Shown here: positions 24,708-39,511 of the stretch, one piece after another
Layout: every line of letters begins with the position of its first letter
How positions within the stretch are numbered: the stretch's first letter is position 1
Assembly: GCF_020860705.1 (NCBI RefSeq)
Contig: NZ_JAJBTT010000029.1
Location: 60,460-124,459 of the forward strand
DNA from: Akkermansia sp.
GTDB taxonomy: Bacteria; Verrucomicrobiota; Verrucomicrobiia; Verrucomicrobiales; Akkermansiaceae
Direction of reading: 5' to 3'
DNA length: 64,000 bases
Program-made: the position numbers and the translations under genes
The notes under the pieces: model-generated
Databases searched by the model: none
What the model was told of the DNA's origin: nothing
What the model saw: the letters and a program-made list of their open reading frames with translations, nothing else

Positions 24708-24713
24708 TATAAT
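24708..24713 (+). promoter_or_regulatory. -10 box of the GH36-like gene
   Basis: A perfect TATAAT lies 5 bases before the ATG at 24719, so transcription would begin at about the start codon. No good -35 box is present 16-18 bases upstream (GGATCT occupies that place). Confidence 0.45.
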
Positions 24714-24718
24714 TGAAG

Positions 24719-26824
24719 ATGAATAGCCATACAATACAAAGCATGGGCGTGGCGCTGGCCGCCGTCGTGTGCCTGCCGTCCCCGGGAGCGGAACCGGCTC
24801 ATGCGGTTCCCCCCGTTTCTCCTGCTCCCGCCGCCGTGGACAGTTCCCTGTTCCCCATCGGGAATGAAAAAGTCGGCCTGGATGTGCGCGTGACGGGTAA
24901 TACGTTTGCAGACGCTGTGTTCCATGACAAGGTGAACGGCCGTTCCTACAGGCTGGGGCCCGATATTTTTGCCCTCATGGTGGTGGATGAAGAGAAGGAT
25001 TTGCGTCCGGAAGTGACGATTGAAAGCAAAAACGCGCCCAGGAAGGAAATCAAATCCCGCTATAAAAAGTTTTCCGCCCGTGATTTCATGGCTCGCACGC
25101 CCAGTGTGGAGAAGATTCCCGCCCGGCCGGACGCCCGCCGTCTGGCGGACCGCCGCCCCGGTCAGCGTGTGACCGTTCCCTTTGTGGGGAACAGGGATGG
25201 ACTGGCTCTTCTCTGGACGGCGGAGGTGCGGGAAGGCTCCCCGTACGTGCGCCTTTCCCTGAAGGTGGAGGCCCGGCATCTTCCCGCCGCCGTCCGCGTG
25301 ATCAGGCTGCTTGACCTGTCAGCTCCGGATGGCCGGGTGATGGGATCCGTCAAGGGGGCTCCCGTTACGGCTTCCGGCGGCACGCTTTTTGCGGGCGTGG
25401 AACATCCCATGTCCGTAAACCGGGCAGAGAAGGACGGCCGCATCCAGGCCCAGATGGAACGCCGTCTGGATATTCCGGCCTGTGCGTCTGTAACTGTTTC
25501 CGCCGTGGTAGGCGTGGCCGCGCCCGGACAGTTGAGGCGCGCTTTTCAGGTGGATTATCTGAATCAGGAGCGCGCGAGGCCCTACGGCGCGTTCCTGAAT
25601 TATAACACGTGGTACGATATCGGCTATTTTGACCGCTATTCCGAGAAAAAAGCCCTGGATGTGATCAATACCTACGGCCGGGAACTCGTGAAAAAACGCG
25701 GTGTAGTGATGGATTCCTTTATGATGGATGACGGCTGGGACGATACGGAGACCCTCTGGAAATTCAATAAGGATTTTCCAGACGAATTCCACAAGGTGCG
25801 TCAGGCCGCAGAATCTTTCGGCGCGGCTCCCGGGGTGTGGCTCTCTCCGTGGGGTGGTTATGGAGACCCCAGGAATAACCGCCTGAAGGCGGCCAATGGA
25901 AAGTTTGAAACGAATGAGGTTGGCTTCGCCCTGGCAGGTTCCAGGTATTACAACTATTTCAGGGACATGTGCGTACACATGATCAGGGAGAATGGCGTTA
26001 ATCATTTCAAGTTTGACGGCACGTCCAGTGTGGAAACCCAGGTTCCGGGCAGCAGGTTCTCCAGTGATTTTGAAGCGATTATCCATTTGATTGAAGAATT
26101 GCGCGGCGTGCGGCCGGACCTGTATGTGAACCTGACCACGGGGACCTGGGCTTCCCCCTTCTGGTTTGGAATTGCAGATTCCATCTGGCGTGGCAACTGG
26201 GACCATGAATTCCGGGGAGAGGGAACGCCGCGCAATCAATGGATGACTTTCCGTGATGCCAAGATTTACGAGAATAACGTGGAAGTATCCCCTTTGTTTC
26301 CGGTCAATTCCCTGATGACCCACGGCGTCATTTACACCAAACGCGCTCATAACCTGGAGAAGGTGGAGGGAGATGACTTGAAAAATGAAATCTGGTCCGG
26401 CTTCGGTTCCGGTACGCAGATGCAGGAAATTTACGTTTCTCCCGGCCTGCTGACGCAGGATGAATGGGATACGCTGGCCGCCGCCGCCAAATGGACCCGT
26501 GCCAACGGAGATACGCTGGTAGATACGCATTGGATCGGCGGGAGCCCTGCGGATATGGAGGTGTACGGCTGGGCTTCCTGGTCCCCGCGGAAGGGTATCC
26601 TGACCCTGCGCAATCCCTCTTCCAGAACGCAGACAGTGAGTTTTGACCCCGCAGCCGTGTTTGAACTGCCGGCTGGGGCTCCTGCGGAGTACAGGCTTTC
26701 TTCCCCCAAGGGGGATTCCCTGCCAGCGGAAGTAATCAGGGCCGGCACTCCGTTTTCCATCACGCTCCAGCCGTTTGAAGTCCTGGTGCTGGAGGCGGTT
26801 TCTGAGAAACAAGACGTGAAATAA
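24719..26824 (+). CDS. Secreted GH36-like glycosidase (alpha-galactosidase type)
   Basis: This 701-residue protein has a signal peptide (cleaved near PSPGAEPAHA), a beta-rich N-terminal part, a TIM barrel (about 280-560) and a C-terminal beta domain. The barrel resembles clan GH-D enzymes. MMDDGWDD (D337-D338) is the usual substrate-binding block. HFKFDGT (about D433) is in the place of the catalytic nucleophile, and GNWDHEF (about D495) in the place of the acid/base. Substrates of such enzymes are alpha-galactosides; in a mucin degrader this could mean glycan caps, but that is inference. The flanking residues KFDGT differ from the usual KxDxN of GH36, so the subfamily is uncertain. Confidence 0.72.
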   Translation: MNSHTIQSMGVALAAVVCLPSPGAEPAHAVPPVSPAPAAVDSSLFPIGNEKVGLDVRVTGNTFADAVFHDKVNGRSYRLGPDIFALMVVDEEKDLRPEVTIESKNAPRKEIKSRYKKFSARDFMARTPSVEKIPARPDARRLADRRPGQRVTVPFVGNRDGLALLWTAEVREGSPYVRLSLKVEARHLPAAVRVIRLLDLSAPDGRVMGSVKGAPVTASGGTLFAGVEHPMSVNRAEKDGRIQAQMERRLDIPACASVTVSAVVGVAAPGQLRRAFQVDYLNQERARPYGAFLNYNTWYDIGYFDRYSEKKALDVINTYGRELVKKRGVVMDSFMMDDGWDDTETLWKFNKDFPDEFHKVRQAAESFGAAPGVWLSPWGGYGDPRNNRLKAANGKFETNEVGFALAGSRYYNYFRDMCVHMIRENGVNHFKFDGTSSVETQVPGSRFSSDFEAIIHLIEELRGVRPDLYVNLTTGTWASPFWFGIADSIWRGNWDHEFRGEGTPRNQWMTFRDAKIYENNVEVSPLFPVNSLMTHGVIYTKRAHNLEKVEGDDLKNEIWSGFGSGTQMQEIYVSPGLLTQDEWDTLAAAAKWTRANGDTLVDTHWIGGSPADMEVYGWASWSPRKGILTLRNPSSRTQTVSFDPAAVFELPAGAPAEYRLSSPKGDSLPAEVIRAGTPFSITLQPFEVLVLEAVSEKQDVK

Positions 26825-27423: not shown

Positions 27424-27879
27424 TCAGGAAAACTTGTCCGGCCTGTTTCCCTCTCCGGAGGAAACAGGCCCGGTTTGCGTATGGGCAGGTTGTTCATCCC
27501 ATTCATCCGGGGAAACGGCACGGCGGCGGATGCTTTTTCCCGGCCAGGGAATATAGGCGTCCGTGTAGAAGGTGGAGGCGCAGCTCCGGCACGTCAGCAT
27601 AATGCCGGTATCCGGTCTTCGTTGTTCCTCCGGCGTCTGTGTAGCGGGATGAAGCCTGGCGTATCCGCAATGCGGACAGTGGATAGGGAGAGGTGCGGCA
27701 TATAACACAGCCAGTGCCGCCGTGCAGACAATGGCCCAGGCAATGTACACCGCCCAGAAAGGCCATTCAGGATTCAGCAGCCAGATGGTGGCAATGGCAG
27801 GAATGGAACAGAGGACATAGAGCAGGGTGCGCTTTTGTCTCCTGGCGAGGAAGTGGAAGCAGTAGATCGTATCCTGCAT
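27424..27879 (-). CDS. Membrane protein with a zinc-ribbon-like motif
   Basis: This 151-residue protein has two hydrophobic segments at the N-terminus (TLLYVLCSIPAIATIWLL and FWAVYIAWAIVCTAALAVLYAA). They are followed by a soluble tail with two cysteine pairs, CPHCGY and CRSC, about 30 residues apart, the pattern of a zinc ribbon. The tail ends in a disordered region. No family is recognised. It begins 19 bases after the stop of the first GH43 gene and is therefore the probable last gene of the seven-gene operon starting at 34563. The end of its coding sequence overlaps the terminator hairpin at 27440-27470. Confidence 0.65.
   Translation of the reverse strand: MQDTIYCFHFLARRQKRTLLYVLCSIPAIATIWLLNPEWPFWAVYIAWAIVCTAALAVLYAAPLPIHCPHCGYARLHPATQTPEEQRRPDTGIMLTCRSCASTFYTDAYIPWPGKSIRRRAVSPDEWDEQPAHTQTGPVSSGEGNRPDKFS
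27440..27470. terminator. Hairpin between convergent genes
   Basis: GGCCTGTTTCC / GGAAACAGGCC is an 11-bp perfect stem with a 9-base loop, between the lipoprotein gene and the zinc-ribbon gene. It lies inside the last codons of the latter and may end both transcripts. Confidence 0.6.
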
Positions 27880-27898
27880 GGGAAGGAGAAGAAACCGG

Positions 27899-29008
27899 TT
27901 ACAGATCCTTCAGTGTCCATTCATCCTTCCATTCCAGCCTGATCTGGTCTCCGTCCCATTTCATGGGCAGCCACAGGTAGCGGCCGTCAATGGCGTTTTT
28001 GGGACGCCAGATGTCCGCCATGAAGATGAATTTGCCGGGCTTGCCCTGCACGGGCAGGATGTAGGTGCTCTGGCCGCCGAAGGTGATGCCGGCTTTGGGC
28101 CCCACGCAGGGGTTCTTGAGCTCCGTCCATGGTCCGGCAATATTGTTGGCTACGGCGCTGCGCGCCGCATTGGGAGCCCAGCCGGAGCATCCGGAGGCGA
28201 TCATGTAATATTTGCCGTTGTATTTGCAGATGGCGGGGGCTTCCATATAGCGGTTGACGAAGGCCCGGACGTATTTTCCGCTATGCCCGGTATAGTCCGG
28301 CGTGAGTTCCGCAATGTGCAGGGTAATGTTCCCCTCGGAGGAGTAGATGTGGTAGGCCTTGCCGTTATCATCGACGAAGATGGTCATGTCCCGGCTCATC
28401 TGGCCGCCGGGAAAGTCCCGCCTGATGATGCGGACGTAGTCGGGCATGTCCATGGTGAATTCCGTGGTCTGGTCCTTTTTATCCAAATTCATGGGCCATT
28501 TGCCCGGATTGACGCGTCCGGCTTTCAGGAACTTGAACGGTCCGGTGGGTTTGGTGGCCGTCGCCACGCCCGCCTGGGCTGCCCCGTATCCCTTGCCCCG
28601 GAGTTCCAGATGGAACCACATCACGTATTTTTTGGTCTTCTTGTTGTACACGACCTTGGGGCGTTCCAGAATGCAGCCCTTGGCGATGGGGTGGGAGTTG
28701 TCCCCTTCCACCACTTTCAGGGCGATTCCCTCGTCCTTCCAGTTGTACAGGTCCTTGGAGGAATAGCAGTGCACGCCCACCTGGGCGCGGTTTCCGGCAT
28801 CTCCCTCCACCTTGTGTTCCCCGTACCAGTAGTAGGTTCCCTTGTCATAGAGGATGCCGCCGCCATGGGCGTTGATATGGACGCCGTTGTTGTCCGTCCA
28901 GATTTCTCCGGGCTTGAAGGACGTGTGCTTTACGGGGGTGTCAGCCGTGGAGACGGAGGAAAGGCAATAGGCCAGTCCGGCAAAAAAGGCAAGCGTTAGC
29001 GTTTTCAT
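27899..29008 (-). CDS. GH43 subfamily 24-type exo-beta-1,3-galactosidase, copy A
   Basis: This 369-residue secreted protein (signal peptide about 1-22, LAYCLSSVSTA) has the five-bladed propeller signature of GH43: INAHGGGILYDKGTYYWYGEHK, ERPKVVYNKKTKKYVMWFH, YMEAPAICKYNGKYYMI and a GGQST block. Known subfamily 24 members remove galactose from beta-1,3-galactans, and this fits mucin core chains. In characterised relatives a glutamine replaces the usual catalytic base; the Gln of GGQST might be it, but I cannot confirm that. It is very close to copy B upstream (29033-30178), with long nearly identical DNA stretches, so the pair is a tandem duplication. Confidence 0.85.
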   Translation of the reverse strand: MKTLTLAFFAGLAYCLSSVSTADTPVKHTSFKPGEIWTDNNGVHINAHGGGILYDKGTYYWYGEHKVEGDAGNRAQVGVHCYSSKDLYNWKDEGIALKVVEGDNSHPIAKGCILERPKVVYNKKTKKYVMWFHLELRGKGYGAAQAGVATATKPTGPFKFLKAGRVNPGKWPMNLDKKDQTTEFTMDMPDYVRIIRRDFPGGQMSRDMTIFVDDNGKAYHIYSSEGNITLHIAELTPDYTGHSGKYVRAFVNRYMEAPAICKYNGKYYMIASGCSGWAPNAARSAVANNIAGPWTELKNPCVGPKAGITFGGQSTYILPVQGKPGKFIFMADIWRPKNAIDGRYLWLPMKWDGDQIRLEWKDEWTLKDL

Positions 29009-29032
29009 GAATAACAGGGAGGGGTGGGGAGG

Positions 29033-30178
29033 TTACAGGTCTTCCAGTTTCCATTCATCCTTCCATTCCAGCTTGATCTGGTCTCCGTCAAACTGGATGG
29101 GCAGCCACAGGTAGCGGCCGTCAATGGCGTTCTGGGGCCGCCAGATGTCCGCCATGAAGATGAATTTGCCGGGTTTGCCCTGCACGGGCAGGATGTAGGT
29201 GCTCTGGCCACCAAAGGTGGTGCCGGCCTTGGGGCCTACGCAGGGATTCTTGAGCTCCGTCCACGGTCCGGCAATGCGGGGCGCCACGGCGCTGCGGGCG
29301 GCGTTGGGGTACCAGCCGGTGCATCCGGAGGCGATAAAGTAGTATTTGCCCTTGTGCTTGAAAATGGCGGGGGCTTCCATGAAGCGGCCTGGAAATGCCC
29401 GGACGAATTTTCCGGTGTGCTCCGTGTAGTCCGGCGTAAGCTCCGCAATGTGGGTGGTGCTGTTTTCTTCGGAGGAATAGATGTGGTAGGCCTTGCCGTC
29501 GTCGTCTACAAAAATAGTCATGTCCCGGCTCATCTGGCCCTTTTCAAAATCCTTCTTGAACATATCCTCGGAGCGCACTCCTTCCGGCAGGGCGCTGGAA
29601 GTCAGACCGGGAACCCCTTTGAACGTTTTCATGGTCTGGTCCTTCTTGTCCATGTTCATGGGCCATTTGCCCGGATTGACGCGTCCGGCTCTCAGGAAGG
29701 TGAATGGTCCGGTGGGTTTGGTGGCCGTCGCCACGCCCGCGTAAGCCGCGCCGTAGCCTTTCCCCTTGAGTTCCAGATGGAACCACATCACGTATTTTTT
29801 AGTCTTCTTGTTGTATACAACCTTGGGACGTTCCAGAATGCAGCCCTTGGCGATGGGGTGGGAGTTGTCCCCTTCCACCACTTTCAGGGCGATTCCCTCA
29901 TCCTTCCAATTGTACAGGTCCTTGGAGGAATAGCAGTGCACGCCCACCTGGGCATAGTTCCCGGCGTCTCCCTCCACCTTGTGTTCCCCGTACCAGTAGT
30001 AGGTCCCTTTGTCGTAGAGGATGCCGCCGCCGTGGGCGTTGATATGGATGCCGTTGTTGTCCGTCCAGATTTCTCCGGGCTTGAAGGACGTGTGTCTGGC
30101 CGGGGTTTCCCCCATGGAAAGGGCGGTTGCACCGCAGAACAGGCAGAGCGCCAGAAGTGATTTCATGGTGTTTGTCAT
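29033..30178 (-). CDS. GH43 subfamily 24-type exo-beta-1,3-galactosidase, copy B
   Basis: This 381-residue paralogue of copy A has the same propeller blocks and a signal peptide (MKSLLALCLFCGATALSMG). It differs mainly in a loop after DKKDQT, where it carries KTFKGVPGLTSSALPEGVRSEDM in two pieces while copy A has a shorter DYVRI loop. This loop may alter substrate fit. The start at 30178 overlaps the upstream stop codon (ATGA), implying translational coupling; the ATG at 30166 is an alternative. It is followed by copy A after 24 bases. Confidence 0.85.
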   Translation of the reverse strand: MTNTMKSLLALCLFCGATALSMGETPARHTSFKPGEIWTDNNGIHINAHGGGILYDKGTYYWYGEHKVEGDAGNYAQVGVHCYSSKDLYNWKDEGIALKVVEGDNSHPIAKGCILERPKVVYNKKTKKYVMWFHLELKGKGYGAAYAGVATATKPTGPFTFLRAGRVNPGKWPMNMDKKDQTMKTFKGVPGLTSSALPEGVRSEDMFKKDFEKGQMSRDMTIFVDDDGKAYHIYSSEENSTTHIAELTPDYTEHTGKFVRAFPGRFMEAPAIFKHKGKYYFIASGCTGWYPNAARSAVAPRIAGPWTELKNPCVGPKAGTTFGGQSTYILPVQGKPGKFIFMADIWRPQNAIDGRYLWLPIQFDGDQIKLEWKDEWKLEDL

Positions 30179-31428
30179 GGCCGGGATGGTTTGGAGATAA
30201 GCGTGGATGGTGGTTCCGGCTGTCCGTACAGCTTGTCCCACGCACGGGAAAGGGCGTACAGGGCATACCCGGTGCCGTAAAATTTGTGGTAATTGTACAG
30301 GGGGTAGTCCCACCAGGAGCCGTCCTTTCCCTGCCGGGCAAGGATGTCGTTAGCCAATAAAGACGCATGGCGTTTTACCTGATTTGGAGCCAGCATGTCC
30401 AGACACATTCCTGAGTAATAGTAACCGTAGTAAAAGAAATACCCGGAATTCTGGGCGAAACTCTCATGGGGGGTGGGTTTGTGGAGGGCCATCGTAAGCC
30501 AGCCCCGGCGGCTCCACAGGCGGTCCAGGCCGTCAATGAGCTGGCGCATGGAGATGGTCTCCGGTTCCCACAGCCTGATGGCGTAATCACAGGCGGGAGT
30601 GCGGGCCAGGCTGCCGGTGTGGCGGTTGATGGGCCTGCCGGGATAAAAGGCGTGCCCCAGGGAATAGACGTAGGTTCCCGCGGGCGTTCTCTGGGATTTG
30701 AGGAATTTCAGCGCGCGGCTGAATATTTTGTCGTCCAGGGCAAGGCCGAACGATTTTCCGGCCATCCAGGCGGAGATGAGAACCGTACCCGTCAGGAAGG
30801 AGGTGGGCTGTGCTGCGGGCCGTTGGCTGAATCCGGAGTAGGTAAGGTAGCCCCACCCTCCCATGGCGGAGGCCAGTTCATTGAGCTTGTCCACCTGGGC
30901 GCGGGCGCACTCCATGAGTTCCCGGTAACGCGGACTGTTCCGGTCCAGCGCCGCCGCCCGCATGCTCATGGCGTCCAGCACATAAGTGTGGGCCCAGGTG
31001 TTGTACACGCAGAGGGCGTCTCCCCGTTTCAAATGGGGCATGGTGCGGATCAGGTAGTCTTCCGCACGGGTCATGGCCTGCTGCACCGCCGGTTCGTTCC
31101 TCAGGGGGCTGGCGTTCAGCCCCGCGATGCACAGGGCCGTGCTGGCCGTCTTGAACGTCAGGGGGCCGTCCGGATAGGGGCATGTGACGTTCCACGTGCC
31201 GATCACCCGGTGGTCTCCCCAGGAGCCGTCCGCGTTCTGTTCTTTCAGCAGGAAATCCACGCCGCGGCGGAAGGCCTGGTCAAATTGTGCGGCTTCTGCG
31301 GGAGGAACGTCCGGTATCTTGGCGATGGGAAGGACATCGGCCTTGCCTGGTGCCATGGATTCCGTTTCCTCTGCGGAAACGTGCAGGGTCGCTGTCAGGA
31401 GCAGGCAGGTGAGCAGCAGGCGGAACAT
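30175..31428 (-). CDS. Secreted prenyltransferase/squalene-cyclase-fold toroid, copy A
   Basis: This 417-residue protein has a signal peptide (MFRLLLTCLLLTATLHVSA) and an alpha/alpha-toroid of the terpene cyclase/prenyltransferase superfamily. Two QW-type motifs frame it: EQNADGSWG near the start and QGKDGSWWDYPLYNYHKFYG near the end. No DxDD motif of squalene-hopene cyclases is seen and no thioester motif, so an enzymatic role is doubtful. Export also argues against terpene synthesis. Shared with copy B are FYPGRPINRHTGSLARTPA and HESFAQNSGYFFYYGYYY. It starts 4 bases after the stop of copy B. A structural or glycan-binding role beside the GH43 enzymes is possible. Confidence 0.75.
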   Translation of the reverse strand: MFRLLLTCLLLTATLHVSAEETESMAPGKADVLPIAKIPDVPPAEAAQFDQAFRRGVDFLLKEQNADGSWGDHRVIGTWNVTCPYPDGPLTFKTASTALCIAGLNASPLRNEPAVQQAMTRAEDYLIRTMPHLKRGDALCVYNTWAHTYVLDAMSMRAAALDRNSPRYRELMECARAQVDKLNELASAMGGWGYLTYSGFSQRPAAQPTSFLTGTVLISAWMAGKSFGLALDDKIFSRALKFLKSQRTPAGTYVYSLGHAFYPGRPINRHTGSLARTPACDYAIRLWEPETISMRQLIDGLDRLWSRRGWLTMALHKPTPHESFAQNSGYFFYYGYYYSGMCLDMLAPNQVKRHASLLANDILARQGKDGSWWDYPLYNYHKFYGTGYALYALSRAWDKLYGQPEPPSTLISKPSRP

Positions 31429-31432
31429 GATG

Positions 31433-32665
31433 TCAGGGTGCGGATGCAGGGTTGGCAGGGTACAGGGAATCCCGCACGCGGGAAACAGCGTACAGGGCAT
31501 ACCCGGTACCGTAGAATTTGTGGTAGTTGTACAGGGGATAATCCCACCAGGAACCGTCTTTTTCCTGCATGGGCAGCAAGTCGGCCGCCAGGTGGGAGGC
31601 GTGGCGGGTCAGGCGTTCCTGAGGCACCTCGGACAGGCAGCGGGCGGCGTAATAGTACCCATAGTAGAAAAAGTAGCCCGCATTCTGGGCGAAGCTTTCA
31701 TGCGGAATGGGTTTTTTCACGGCCAGTGAAAGCCATCCTCCGCGGCTCCAGATGCGTTCCAGGCCGTCCTCCAGCTGCCGTCTGGAAATGAAATCCGGAT
31801 CGTACAGGAGGAGGGCCAGGTCACCTGCGGGGGTGCGGGCCAGGCTGCCGGTATGGCGGTTGATGGGCCTGCCGGGATAAAAGGTGTGGGAGATGGAATA
31901 GACATAGCTTCCGGCAGGCGTCCGCAGTTTTTCCAGCCCGGCCACCGCCCGCTTGAGAATACGGGGATCTGGTTTGAGGCCAAAGGCCCGTTCCGCGTCC
32001 TTGTAGGCGATCAGGACCGTAGCCGTCAGGAAGGAAGTGGGTTCTCCGATGGGGCGTTTGGAAAAGGTTTCAAACGTGTAATAGCCCCATCCTCCCTGCA
32101 CGTCCGCCATCTGGTCCAGCGCTTTTACCTGGAGATCGGCCACTTTTTTGAGTTCCGCGTACAGGGGGGAATTGACCGGAAGGTTGCTGGCGGCCCTGCT
32201 CAGGGCGGAAAGGCCGTACGCATGCCCCCATACGCCGAGCACGGTGCGCGTATCCCCCCGTTTCAGGGTGGGCAGTGTGGTGAGCAGGTACTGGATGGCC
32301 CTGTCTACGGCCGTTTTCACGGCGGGGTCCTCTTTCAGCGGGCTGGCGAGCAGGCCGATGACGCACAGGGAGGTGGAGGCCGTCCTGAAGGACCTGGGGC
32401 CTTCCGGGTAGGGACAGATGACGTTCAGCCCCTTGGTGCGCGTGTGGCTTCCCCAGGAACCGTCCCTGTTCTGGCTGCCGAGCAGGAAATCCGCCGCCTT
32501 GCGGATGGAAGCGTCCAGCTTTTCCCGCGAGGGCGGCGGTACGTCCGGCACCCGGGCAATGGGAATGGTATCCCTTTTCTCCTTGTCCGCATGTTCTGCC
32601 CGGACGGGGGCGCAGAGCGCCGTGCAGGCTCCCAGGGCGGCAAGAAGGAGGAAGGCCTTGTTCAT
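31433..32665 (-). CDS. Secreted prenyltransferase/squalene-cyclase-fold toroid, copy B
   Basis: This 410-residue paralogue of copy A has its own signal peptide (MNKAFLLLAALGACTALCAPVRA) and the motifs SQNRDGSWGSH and QEKDGSWWDYPLYNYHKF. As in copy A the superfamily fold is recognisable but no cyclase DxDD motif is present. The frame could open at TTG 32686, overlapping the upstream stop; the ATG at 32665 directly begins the signal peptide and is preferred. It lies between the HlyD-like gene and toroid copy A, all on one strand. Confidence 0.75.
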   Translation of the reverse strand: MNKAFLLLAALGACTALCAPVRAEHADKEKRDTIPIARVPDVPPPSREKLDASIRKAADFLLGSQNRDGSWGSHTRTKGLNVICPYPEGPRSFRTASTSLCVIGLLASPLKEDPAVKTAVDRAIQYLLTTLPTLKRGDTRTVLGVWGHAYGLSALSRAASNLPVNSPLYAELKKVADLQVKALDQMADVQGGWGYYTFETFSKRPIGEPTSFLTATVLIAYKDAERAFGLKPDPRILKRAVAGLEKLRTPAGSYVYSISHTFYPGRPINRHTGSLARTPAGDLALLLYDPDFISRRQLEDGLERIWSRGGWLSLAVKKPIPHESFAQNAGYFFYYGYYYAARCLSEVPQERLTRHASHLAADLLPMQEKDGSWWDYPLYNYHKFYGTGYALYAVSRVRDSLYPANPASAP

Positions 32666-32682
32666 GGATGGTCCGGGGTGGC

Positions 32683-33867
32683 TCAAGCCTGCTGGTCCTT
32701 GATGGTCACCTGAACGGGAAGGCCGGGCGCAAAGATCTGGCTGGCGGGAACCTTGGGCGTGATAATGATGCGGCGCTTTCCGTCGGCGCCCGGAATGGGG
32801 CTGGCTTCCGTGATGATGCCGGGAATCTGCATGTTCGTCACCTTGATGACGACGGTTTCCCCGACTTTGGGCGTAGCCGTGGAGTCCGGCAGGGTGGCCT
32901 GCACGATCAGTTCCGAATCAGGGGGCACGATAGTGGCGAGTTTGTCAAAGGCTTCCAGTTTGCCGCCGGGCTTGAGCTTTTCCGCTACCGGAATAGCCAC
33001 CCATTTGTCAGCCACGTAGCCGCCGTAAAGCAGGATGCCGTTTTCCGGTGCCTTGAAGGCGGCCATTTCCCGGTCCGCTTTCAATTCATTGTATTTGTCC
33101 TGAAGGCGGCGCAGGGAGACTTCCGCTTCCGTCAGGGCAATCTTCTTCTGTTCCAGGTCAAACTCCGCCTGTTTCCGGGTTTCCGCCAGGTCCATCTGCT
33201 TTTCCTTGACGGCCGTGGCGTAGTCTTCTCCCAGGCGGTGGATATTGCGCAGTTTGGCAAGCTCCGCGACGAGCTTGGCTCCCTGCACGGCAAATTCACT
33301 TTCCCCCAGTTCGTTTTTCAGGCGTTTCAGGATAATTTCCTCCGTTTCTTCCGCCACCTGGTCATCCTTGTACATCTTGGTGAGCTGGTTCAGCTCCTCC
33401 TGCTTGTAGGACATGTGGCGGAGGGCCTTGTTCACGCGTTCCTCCTCTTCCGCCAGCATGCGGGCCTTCCGTTTTTCCAGAAAGTCCTTCTGGTCCTCTT
33501 GCGTGCGCGCCAGGGCAGTCTGGGACTTTTGGAGGGCCAGGGCGGAGCGTTCCTTTTGCTGGTCCAGGGCGTAGCGGAGTTTCAACACCTCCAGGTTCTT
33601 GCTTTTAATGGTGCGTTCGTAATCCTCAATGCTCTTGTCCAGAATGCGGAAATCCGCCTGCGCTACGGATTCCCCTTTCTTGACGGAACTGCCCTGGGGC
33701 ATGATGCCCAGCAGGAAAATATCCGAAGACCCCTTGGGGGAAAAGGAAATGGACTTGGTATTCTTTTTGGGCAGCAGGATGCCCGGGGCAATGGAGTCCG
33801 CCATGGCGGGAACTCCCATCAGGAGAGCGGCCAAAAGGCCGGCGGTGGTGAGGAATAGGTGCTTCAT
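32683..33867 (-). CDS. Secreted HlyD-like coiled-coil protein (membrane fusion protein type)
   Basis: This 394-residue protein has a cleavable signal peptide (MKHLFLTTAGLLAALLMGVPAMA). A first half-lipoyl-like segment (IFLLGIMPQGSSVKKGESVAQADF) is followed by a long coiled coil (about 75-265). The returning half-motif is FKAPENGILLYGG, and a beta-barrel part follows (ELIVQATLPDSTATPKVGETVVIKV). This is the layout of periplasmic adaptor proteins of efflux or secretion pumps. No inner-membrane pump, ABC partner or TolC is nearby. It lies 15 bases after the methyltransferase-like gene and just before the two toroid genes. Confidence 0.75.
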   Translation of the reverse strand: MKHLFLTTAGLLAALLMGVPAMADSIAPGILLPKKNTKSISFSPKGSSDIFLLGIMPQGSSVKKGESVAQADFRILDKSIEDYERTIKSKNLEVLKLRYALDQQKERSALALQKSQTALARTQEDQKDFLEKRKARMLAEEEERVNKALRHMSYKQEELNQLTKMYKDDQVAEETEEIILKRLKNELGESEFAVQGAKLVAELAKLRNIHRLGEDYATAVKEKQMDLAETRKQAEFDLEQKKIALTEAEVSLRRLQDKYNELKADREMAAFKAPENGILLYGGYVADKWVAIPVAEKLKPGGKLEAFDKLATIVPPDSELIVQATLPDSTATPKVGETVVIKVTNMQIPGIITEASPIPGADGKRRIIITPKVPASQIFAPGLPVQVTIKDQQA

Positions 33868-33882
33868 ATGGAAATGATGAAA

Positions 33883-34563
33883 TCAGGACTGGTGGGCGGA
33901 GAAGGGGACGAAACGACCCTTCTTTCCCAATATAACGGTGTGAAAAGTGGTTTTCTTTCCTTTATGTGAAGCAGGCACGGCTTCCGTGCTGACTTCAAAG
34001 CCCGCTTTTTGCAGGGTGCGGGTCAGCCGGGTATCCGGCCGGGCCACGGTGATGACCAGAAGGCCGCCCTGCTTGAGCGCGGCAAAATAGTCGGAAGCCT
34101 CCGCCACGGTCAGGTTCATGCGTTCATGGGTGGAACGGCACAGGATGGCGTGGAAGCTCTTCGGGTTTTTGCGGGCTACCTGGAGAGCCGGGGCAAATTC
34201 CACGCTGACGCGCGGATCGTGTAAAAAACCGGGCCGTTCCTGGTCCATGAACTGCTGGTGCCAGTCAACGAGCTGCCTGCATGGTTCCGCCACGATGAAG
34301 CGGGCCTTTTCCCTCTGGACCTGGTCCATCAGGGCAAACAGGGTGAAGCCCAGGCTGAGGCCGTCCAGAAGAAAAGAGGGCTGGTTGGCCCTTTTAACCG
34401 GGGCCGCCGCCATGGCCGCCGCCGCTTCATTGCTCCCATGGGAAAAACTGGATGCCAGCTGCACGCCGTCGCGGAGAAGAAAGTGGAAGCCGTCCCGTTC
34501 CCAGAGGTCGAGAATGGAACCGTCAGGCAAGGTAGTGAACGCTAGTTTGGTAATGGGTTTCAT
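33883..34563 (-). CDS. Spermidine-synthase/methyltransferase-like protein
   Basis: This 226-residue cytoplasmic protein resembles the Rossmann fold of spermidine synthases. It has a beta-rich start (TLPDGSILDLWERDGFHFLLRDGVQLASS), FLLDGLSLGFTLFALM at the cofactor-loop place, ARFIVAEPCRQLVDW after strand 2 and a later FHAILCRSTHERMNLTVAEASDYFAALKQGGLLVI strand. The Gly-rich motif (DGLSLGFT) departs from the canonical GxGxG, so activity is uncertain. It is the first gene of the operon that runs down to 27424. Confidence 0.65.
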   Translation of the reverse strand: MKPITKLAFTTLPDGSILDLWERDGFHFLLRDGVQLASSFSHGSNEAAAAMAAAPVKRANQPSFLLDGLSLGFTLFALMDQVQREKARFIVAEPCRQLVDWHQQFMDQERPGFLHDPRVSVEFAPALQVARKNPKSFHAILCRSTHERMNLTVAEASDYFAALKQGGLLVITVARPDTRLTRTLQKAGFEVSTEAVPASHKGKKTTFHTVILGKKGRFVPFSAHQS

Positions 34564-38937: not shown

Positions 38938-39511
38938 TTACTTTCTCCTGCGTCTTAACAGCAGGGCTTCCAATCCCAGGAGGCCCAGCGTCGCAGTGGC
39001 GGGTTCCGGAAAGGCTGCCCATGTCCAGTGTTTCAGTGAAGGAGACGGTGTGGTTTTTGGTCCAGAAGTCAGGGTATCCGCGGCAGTCCAGGAACCGTGT
39101 TCCGCGGCGCTGAAGGTGCCGAAATTCAGCATAAAGTCCTTATTGATGCCGAAAGCGTTTGTGGATTCGAAAACCAGGTGGGCATTCCCTTCCAGCGTAA
39201 CCGTGTTGACCTGGAAATCTCCCACTCCTGCGTAAGTGGTGCATAAAAGGGTATTTCCGGATCCCAGCTGATGCTCCGCAATGATCTTGCTGGTTAGACC
39301 AGATAATGGTTCCGACGCTTTCTCCAATGATGGCGTCGTCACCGCTGCTCTGCGGATAATAGCCATTCGGTGATCCATTTACCGTCCAATTGTTTGTATC
39401 TCCATAAATTCCGTTTCCCGCCGCTCCGCTCCAGATATAAGTGGTGGCAGCCTGGGAAATACCCGCGGACAGGAAGCATAACATGCAAAGTGTAGATAGT
39501 CTCATGCGCAA
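38938..39511 (-). pseudogene. PEP-CTERM protein interrupted by a frameshift
   Basis: The N-terminal half is in one frame (start 39511: signal peptide MRMRLSTLCMLCFLSAGISQA, then TYIWSGAAGNGIYGDTNNWTV). The C-terminal half is in the next frame (open to 39378): KIIAEHQLGSGNTLL and FQVNTVTLEGNAHLVFES, ending FPEPATATLGLLGLEALLLRRRRK, a PEP-CTERM sorting tail. The switch falls near 39280-39310, at about TCTAACCAGCAAGATCATT. A one-base indel would restore a protein of about 190 residues. It may be a true pseudogene, a sequencing error or a programmed shift. Confidence 0.7.

What the first reader, a model, noticed from the sequence alone, without database searches (positions are those of the whole stretch)
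27424..34563. Seven-gene operon joining secreted toroids, an HlyD-like protein and GH43 enzymes
The genes are packed with gaps of 4-24 bases or overlaps, all on the minus strand: spermidine-synthase-like, HlyD-like exported coiled coil, two exported squalene-cyclase-fold toroids, two GH43_24-type galactosidases and a membrane zinc-ribbon protein. None but the GH43s has an obvious role. The set reads like a cell-surface or periplasmic machine that binds, cuts or presents a galactose-rich glycan, and I know no described system with this composition.
Basis: partly seen in the sequence, partly recalled or inferred. Interest (0 to 1): 0.72.

Follow-up and report, generated by a model that had tools for sequence, protein, structure and literature searches.

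The report
Pumpless adaptor and toroid pair
At the heart of this seven-gene Akkermansia operon is a pair of exported proteins, a long coiled rod related to drug-pump adaptors and a ring-shaped helical protein with one conserved pocket, that lie side by side in many Verrucomicrobiota and Planctomycetota without any pump gene regularly beside them; their job is unknown.

Summary
Seven minus-strand genes at 27424-34563 are packed with gaps of 4-24 bases or a 4-base overlap, and a terminator-like hairpin lies at the end of the last gene. The interpretation needs correcting. The conserved unit is not the seven-gene set but two genes: an EmrA/HlyD-like exported adaptor directly upstream of a single (alpha/alpha)6 toroid. 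The pair is adjacent in 70 of 77 assessable named loci, and 78 of 96 strong adaptor hits in 294 Planctomycetota genomes have a toroid next to them. The GH43_24 pair is a late addition in one Akkermansia clade; two divergent Akkermansia carry a GH36 galactosidase there instead. Both core proteins carry short signal peptides, no pump gene recurs beside them, and conservation sits on two surfaces: the hairpin tip and one mouth of the toroid. Best reading: a two-protein periplasmic machine, an adaptor rod plus a ligand-binding or catalytic toroid, to which Akkermansia attached galactosidases. Module, fold and export are well supported by sequence and prediction; physical contact, ligand and function are inferred. 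A covariation test for tip-mouth contact was explained by phylogeny.

The parts
33883..34563 (-). SpeE-like (degenerate polyamine-aminopropyltransferase / SAM-methyltransferase fold) protein without signal peptide, 226 aa; first gene of the operon
   Evidence: profile of 20 relatives matches spermidine synthases in PDB at E 1.6e-6; found in 58 of 241 Verrucomicrobiota genomes, also in 8 Akkermansia without the rest; lacks the Asp residues of the SpeE active site (IIDLTDP in 1uir corresponds to ILCRSTH here)
32683..33867 (-). HlyD/EmrA-like exported adaptor, 394 aa, signal peptide, no membrane anchor predicted; CORE gene 1
   Evidence: AF2 model pLDDT 90.4; best solved match EmrA 4tko, Z 15.9, rmsd 10.8, 317 aligned; profile matches MexC/MacA/AcrA-type adaptors down to E 8.6e-15
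33316..33405 (-). hairpin tip of the adaptor (residues 155-184), signature EEL-QL-KMY--DDLTEETEEIILKR
   Evidence: residues E158 Q161 L162 M165 Y166 R182 invariant in 66 relatives; the only strongly conserved stretch
31433..32665 (-). toroid 1, exported single (alpha/alpha)6 barrel, 410 aa; CORE gene 2
   Evidence: AF2 model pLDDT 90.8; Z 20-23 to terpene cyclases and to sugar-active (alpha/alpha)6 enzymes alike; 38 of 40 near-invariant polar/aromatic residues on one mouth
30175..31428 (-). toroid 2, exported, 417 aa, 55% identical to toroid 1; duplicate found in Akkermansia
   Evidence: departs from consensus at T77, K78, K317, where toroid 1 keeps it, while toroid 1 departs at Y143, N144
29033..30178 (-). 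GH43_24-type exo-beta-1,3-galactosidase a, exported, 381 aa; lineage-specific add-on
   Evidence: E 1.4e-130 to 6eug, 1.4e-54 to galactan 1,3-beta-galactosidase 7bys; same E, E, Q positions as GH43b (alignments)
27899..29008 (-). GH43_24-type exo-beta-1,3-galactosidase b, exported, 369 aa; lineage-specific add-on
   Evidence: E 3.9e-124 to 6eug; E (LERPKV), E (MEAPAI), Q (GGQSTY) align with 7bys
27424..27879 (-). small membrane protein with CxxC...CxxC zinc-ribbon-like motif, 151 aa; weakest member, not found in the G021 operon
   Evidence: no family over cut-off; 63% identical copy in L100, none in L101
27438..27473 (-). terminator-like hairpin followed by GTTTT at the end of the operon
   Evidence: -25.3 kcal/mol, z -2.4, 5 of 200 shuffles as good

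Best explanation
The core is a two-protein envelope module of Verrucomicrobiota and Planctomycetota. Shown by sequence and prediction: an adaptor of the EmrA/HlyD fold, with a hairpin of two helices of about 95 residues (roughly 140 angstrom) and a short cleavable-type signal peptide in place of a membrane anchor, is encoded directly upstream of an exported single-domain (alpha/alpha)6 toroid; no pump gene recurs beside the pair. Inferred: the adaptor forms a periplasmic rod or tube whose hairpin tip docks on a partner (an outer-membrane channel or the toroid), and the toroid's single conserved, aromatic and mostly basic mouth binds or processes an extracytoplasmic ligand, most likely a saccharide. 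In gut Akkermansia the toroid was duplicated and two GH43_24 exo-beta-1,3-galactosidases were added downstream, so here the module probably works on, or holds, galactose-containing glycan fragments.
For: Adjacency in the same order: 70 of 77 assessable loci of Verrucomicrobiota and Planctomycetota, two more with one gene between; conversely 78 of 96 adaptor hits over 150 bits in 294 Planctomycetota genomes have a toroid within 2.5 kb on the same strand, while low-ranked toroids (ranks 101-160) rarely lie beside such a hit, 4 of 60. Confident folds and matches. Signal peptides in nearly all members, median uncharged span 15 residues, short for a membrane anchor. One-sided conservation of the toroid, Fisher p 9e-12, and conservation of the adaptor mainly at the tip. 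No neighbour family other than SpeE-like is recurrent. Galactosidases of two families follow the toroids in different Akkermansia lineages. GH43 proteins Amuc_0697/0698, probably the type-strain counterparts (inferred, not tested), are detected on mucin and listed as important for growth on it (PMC12834350).
Against: No direct evidence of contact: tip-mouth covariation in 154 pairs is reproduced when partners are shuffled within clades, so phylogeny explains it, and the charge switch rests on very few events. The fold matches terpene cyclases as well as sugar enzymes, and the only widespread Pfam match is SQHop_cyclase_C. The saccharide idea leans on Akkermansia alone. The galactosidase paper's text names no activity for the GH43_24 enzymes it assayed (PMC11790493).
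Confidence: 0.42

Rival explanations
1. Conventional tripartite export: the adaptor serves an inner-membrane pump encoded elsewhere and a TolC-family channel, and the toroid is its cargo, cap or an accessory enzyme.
For: Adaptor fold closest to EmrA, MacA; OEP/TolC-family proteins are present in all 23 genomes tested; conservation peaks at the hairpin tip, the part that docks on TolC in known pumps (background knowledge). One locus, L096, has an OppC-type permease downstream.
Against: No membrane anchor, unlike EmrA, HlyD and AcrA (anchors of those are background knowledge); no pump family among recurrent neighbours; OEP proteins are equally present in module-less Akkermansia; no such toroid partner is known to me in these systems.
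Confidence: 0.25
2. One reading: all seven proteins form one cell-surface machine that binds and cuts a galactose-rich glycan.
For: Tight packing and probable single terminator; intact GH43_24 catalytic residues; GH36 in the same place in divergent Akkermansia.
Against: GH43 and zinc-ribbon genes are not part of the conserved unit; the pair occurs without glycosidases in Planctomycetota and other Akkermansiaceae; the SpeE-like protein has no signal peptide and occurs alone.
Confidence: 0.14
3. The toroid is a terpenoid or hopanoid enzyme or lipid-binding protein and the pair moves or modifies membrane terpenoids.
For: All 78 toroids match SQHop_cyclase_C; fold matches type II terpene cyclases; Akkermansia has squalene/phytoene-synthase-family genes.
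Against: DxDD motif in 2 of 78 only; exported; module-bearing G236 and G086 show no squalene-synthase-family gene (86% and 92% complete), while module-less Akkermansia have one.
Confidence: 0.08
4. A protein-sorting or envelope-assembly scaffold: the toroid mouth and adaptor tip bind proteins or peptides.
For: In one Planctomycetota group (L203-L205) a third exported toroid with up to four inserted PDZ domains precedes the adaptor gene; adaptors are structural proteins; the tip is acidic and the mouth basic in most members.
Against: PDZ-toroids occur in a minority of loci; nothing ties the main toroid to peptides.
Confidence: 0.11

Closest known systems
EmrA / HlyD-type periplasmic adaptor (membrane fusion) proteins
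   Same: Barrel-sandwich, beta-barrel and long alpha-hairpin; fold match to EmrA 4tko Z 15.9; profile match to MexC/MacA/AcrA-type proteins
   Different: Signal peptide instead of a membrane anchor; no recurring pump or OEP gene nearby; its own invariant tip signature; partnered with a toroid
Squalene-hopene and type II terpene cyclases (SQHop_cyclase superfamily)
   Same: Remote sequence similarity (Pfam over cut-off), QW-like motifs, (alpha/alpha)6 fold
   Different: Single exported domain, no DxDD, its own set of invariant residues on the mouth
Sugar-active (alpha/alpha)6 enzymes: GH76, GH88/GH105, AGE-type epimerases, AprG
   Same: Fold matches of equal strength, Z 20-23; aromatic-rich single mouth
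   Different: No clear sequence similarity found; catalytic residues of these families not identified in the toroid
SecA_DEAD/HlyD module of Planctomycetes and Verrucomicrobia (PMC4452313)
   Same: Another conserved PVC gene module with HlyD-domain proteins and no ABC transporter
   Different: Contains SecA_DEAD, M50-like and GAF proteins; no squalene-cyclase-type protein is mentioned (term search)
GH43_24 exo-beta-1,3-galactosidases with solved structures (6eug, 7bys)
   Same: Both window GH43s align over the catalytic domain with the E/E/Q residues kept
   Different: Operon context; substrate of the Akkermansia enzymes not established

Membership tests
Periplasmic adaptor (HlyD/EmrA/MFP) family | lipoyl/barrel-sandwich + beta-barrel + alpha-hairpin fold | tested here: met
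Periplasmic adaptor (HlyD/EmrA/MFP) family | N-terminal inner-membrane anchor or lipid anchor | tested here: not met
   69 of 84 relatives with a plain signal peptide, 6 with a possible lipobox; the window protein has no lipobox. Crude script, not SignalP
Periplasmic adaptor (HlyD/EmrA/MFP) family | works with an ABC, MFS or RND pump | tested here: inconclusive
   no pump family recurs as neighbour, but an unlinked pump cannot be excluded
Periplasmic adaptor (HlyD/EmrA/MFP) family | tip motif docking on TolC | tested here: inconclusive
   tip strongly conserved but profile alignments to known adaptors do not cover it
Class II terpene cyclase / squalene-hopene cyclase | (alpha/alpha)6 fold with QW-like motifs | tested here: met
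Class II terpene cyclase / squalene-hopene cyclase | DxDD catalytic acid | tested here: not met
   2 of 78 sequences contain it anywhere
GH43 subfamily 24 exo-beta-1,3-galactosidase | GH43 domain and the Glu, Glu, Gln active-site residues | tested here: met
GH43 subfamily 24 exo-beta-1,3-galactosidase | releases galactose from beta-1,3-galactan | not testable with these tools
   needs an assay; the published panel's text credits GH2/GH35 enzymes only (PMC11790493)
Spermidine synthase (SpeE) | passes the family model | tested here: not met
   no PF01564 match in the genome; NCBIfam 11 bits against cut-off 260
Spermidine synthase (SpeE) | active-site Asp residues | tested here: not met
   IIDLTDP of 1uir corresponds to ILCRSTH in the window protein; relatives outside Akkermansia often keep the first Asp

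The most novel reading that the evidence does not exclude
A new class of envelope machine: a pumpless, unanchored adaptor rod whose acidic hairpin tip plugs into the basic, aromatic mouth of a toroid, present across Verrucomicrobiota and Planctomycetota, with the toroid acting as the catalytic or gating end in place of a pump or TolC.
Probability: 0.25. Interest if true: 0.82.

Novelty: new variant of a known kind. Interest (0 to 1): 0.56.

Why it matters
It defines a gene pair shared by two environmentally important phyla, including human gut Akkermansia, that the open-access papers searched do not describe. Adaptors are thought of as pump parts; an adaptor family that lives without a neighbouring pump and next to an exported toroid would widen what this fold does. 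In Akkermansia it gives a concrete, testable target beside two galactosidases reported as important for growth on mucin.

Tried and rejected
Tip-mouth contact by covariation: 75-78 of the top 200 inter-protein pairs were tip x mouth against about 10 expected, but shuffling partners within clades gave the same count, and tip and mouth are each over-represented independently (99 and 146 of 200), so no contact is claimed. Charge anticorrelation of tip and mouth (rho -0.52) and the E176/K317 association rest on very few tree changes, with no shared branch. Apparent long toroid ORFs in Planctomycetota were mostly upstream open frame overlapping the adaptor gene, not fusions. Squalene or hopanoid link weakened. 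OEP presence was uninformative. Papers: no hit for the core locus tags Amuc_0693-0696, none for a PVC HlyD-squalene cyclase pair; a genetic-screen paper that may be the source of 'important for growth on mucin' is not in the library. No plasmid record matched toroid 1. The 703-aa neighbour was tested against the GH36 of L098 and the PDB without a meaningful match.
Full report
What is there. The window lies in an Akkermansia genome (G000, 3.07 Mb; the genus is inferred from close Akkermansia relatives). Refined starts give toroid 1 at 31433-32665, toroid 2 at 30175-31428 and GH43a at 29033-30178, with gaps of 15, 17, 4, -4, 24 and 19 bases. A convergent gene ends 19 bases beyond the zinc-ribbon gene, and a strong hairpin with a short T run overlaps the end of that last gene. 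Co-transcription is therefore likely but not shown.

Which part is conserved. Searches of 241 Verrucomicrobiota genomes with toroid 1, the HlyD-like protein, the SpeE-like protein and GH43b separate the genes into layers. All 12 Akkermansia genomes with the toroid have the HlyD-like gene directly upstream; 8 other Akkermansia genomes show no match for toroid, HlyD-like gene or GH43 but keep the SpeE-like gene. Other Akkermansiaceae (G176, G213) have SpeE-like, HlyD-like and one toroid but their GH43s are elsewhere; G235, G238 and the distant G236 and G086 have the HlyD-toroid pair without the SpeE-like gene beside it. In G229 and G093, the divergent Akkermansia, a GH36 (melibiase, E 1e-107 or better) follows the toroids instead of GH43, and their GH43 lies elsewhere.

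Breadth. A toroid alignment found at least 339 relatives in named genomes; the best 80 give 79 loci, nearly all titled Verrucomicrobiota or Planctomycetota. A HlyD-like gene is immediately upstream in 70 of 77 assessable loci and one gene further up in two more; SpeE-like in 23 of 79; no other family recurs consistently. To avoid seeding on the toroid alone, 294 Planctomycetota genomes were searched with each protein separately: toroid at E below 1e-30 in 150, adaptor at E below 1e-20 in 167. Of 96 adaptor hits over 150 bits, 78 have a listed toroid downstream within 2.5 kb, and several of the rest lie near contig ends. Genes directly downstream of the toroid outside Akkermansia look unrelated (for example a YqgF-like, an S4-domain-like and a MutS-like protein, read from their sequence; in 57 of 79 loci no co-directional gene follows closely).

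Structure. With 66 and 78 sequences AlphaFold2 gave confident models: adaptor pLDDT 90.4, toroid 90.8. The adaptor has two helices, residues 74-168 and 173-268, in a hairpin of about 140 angstrom (95 residues at 1.5 angstrom, my arithmetic), and its best solved match is EmrA (Z 15.9, rmsd 10.8, 317 aligned). The toroid is one (alpha/alpha)6 barrel, tied between squalene-hopene and type II terpene cyclases, GH76, unsaturated glucuronyl hydrolases, AGE-type epimerases and AprG (Z 20-23), so the fold does not decide function.

Conserved surfaces. Of 40 near-invariant polar or aromatic toroid residues, 38 lie in the loops leading into the inner helices or at their N-termini, that is on one mouth (p 9e-12). 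They include W146, Y150, Y195, F212, Y256, R277, H322, E323, Y331, D375, Y379, Y381, H382 and Y385. The adaptor is conserved mainly at its hairpin tip, with E158, Q161, L162, M165, Y166 and R182 invariant. DxDD, the terpene-cyclase acid, is absent. Signal peptides without membrane anchors are the rule for both proteins; a few toroids look like lipoproteins.

A test that failed. I paired 154 adaptors and toroids and asked whether tip and mouth residues covary. They top the list, but shuffling partners within clades gives the same enrichment, and tip and mouth are each over-represented on their own, so the signal is phylogenetic. The charge anticorrelation and the E176-K317 pattern collapse to very few changes on a tree. 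Direct contact remains an untested idea.

The rest of the operon. Both GH43s keep the Glu, Glu and Gln positions seen in galactan 1,3-beta-galactosidase 7bys (the roles of these residues are background knowledge). In the type strain, GH43 proteins Amuc_0697 and Amuc_0698, probably these genes (inferred from their being adjacent GH43 genes), were detected in mucin-grown cells and listed as important for growth on mucin (PMC12834350), while the enzyme survey that included GH43_24 names GH2 and GH35 enzymes as active in its text (PMC11790493; the figure could not be read). The SpeE-like protein is a degenerate relative of aminopropyltransferases without the active-site Asp residues. The zinc-ribbon gene is not conserved.

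Mechanism and verdict. Shown by sequence and prediction: a two-gene unit spanning Verrucomicrobiota and Planctomycetota, export, folds, and two conserved surfaces. Inferred: physical association, rod-like spanning of the periplasm, a ligand in the toroid mouth, saccharide as the likeliest ligand (aromatic mouth; galactosidases of two families following the toroids in different Akkermansia). The known system it most resembles is a tripartite pump adaptor, but it lacks the anchor and any recurring pump neighbour, so it is filed as a new variant, with a categorically new machine left open at about one in four.

Noticed in passing
window 24713-26824 (+): 703-aa exported protein with a DDGW/HFKFDG-type glycosidase look but no Pfam, NCBIfam or PDB match; possibly an undescribed glycosidase.
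   Followed up: partly
L203 728-3445, L204 304-2955, L205 6979-9570: Planctomycetota loci with a third exported toroid carrying inserted PDZ domains just upstream of the adaptor.
   Followed up: partly
L111 1173-4103: One ORF joins the toroid to further domains that read like a phosphodiesterase-like and an SGNH-like part; could be a fusion.
   Followed up: no
G218:C1 1450245-1451472: Toroid 2 is interrupted by a stop and split over two frames in one Akkermansia genome while toroid 1, adaptor and GH43s read through, so toroid 2 may be dispensable.
   Followed up: no
L141 and L173, between adaptor and toroid (about 6.3-8.9 kb): An 858-869-aa lipoprotein-like protein with MORN-like repeats (read from its sequence) is inserted between the two core genes.
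   Followed up: no
window 38938-39511 (-): Two overlapping frames look like one PEP-CTERM-type protein split by a frameshift; L100 2701-3477 has a longer relative.
   Followed up: no
window 31433-32665 and 30175-31428: Toroids 1 and 2 deviate from the family consensus at different mouth positions (toroid 1: Y143, N144; toroid 2: T77, K78, K317), as if specialised after duplication.
   Followed up: partly
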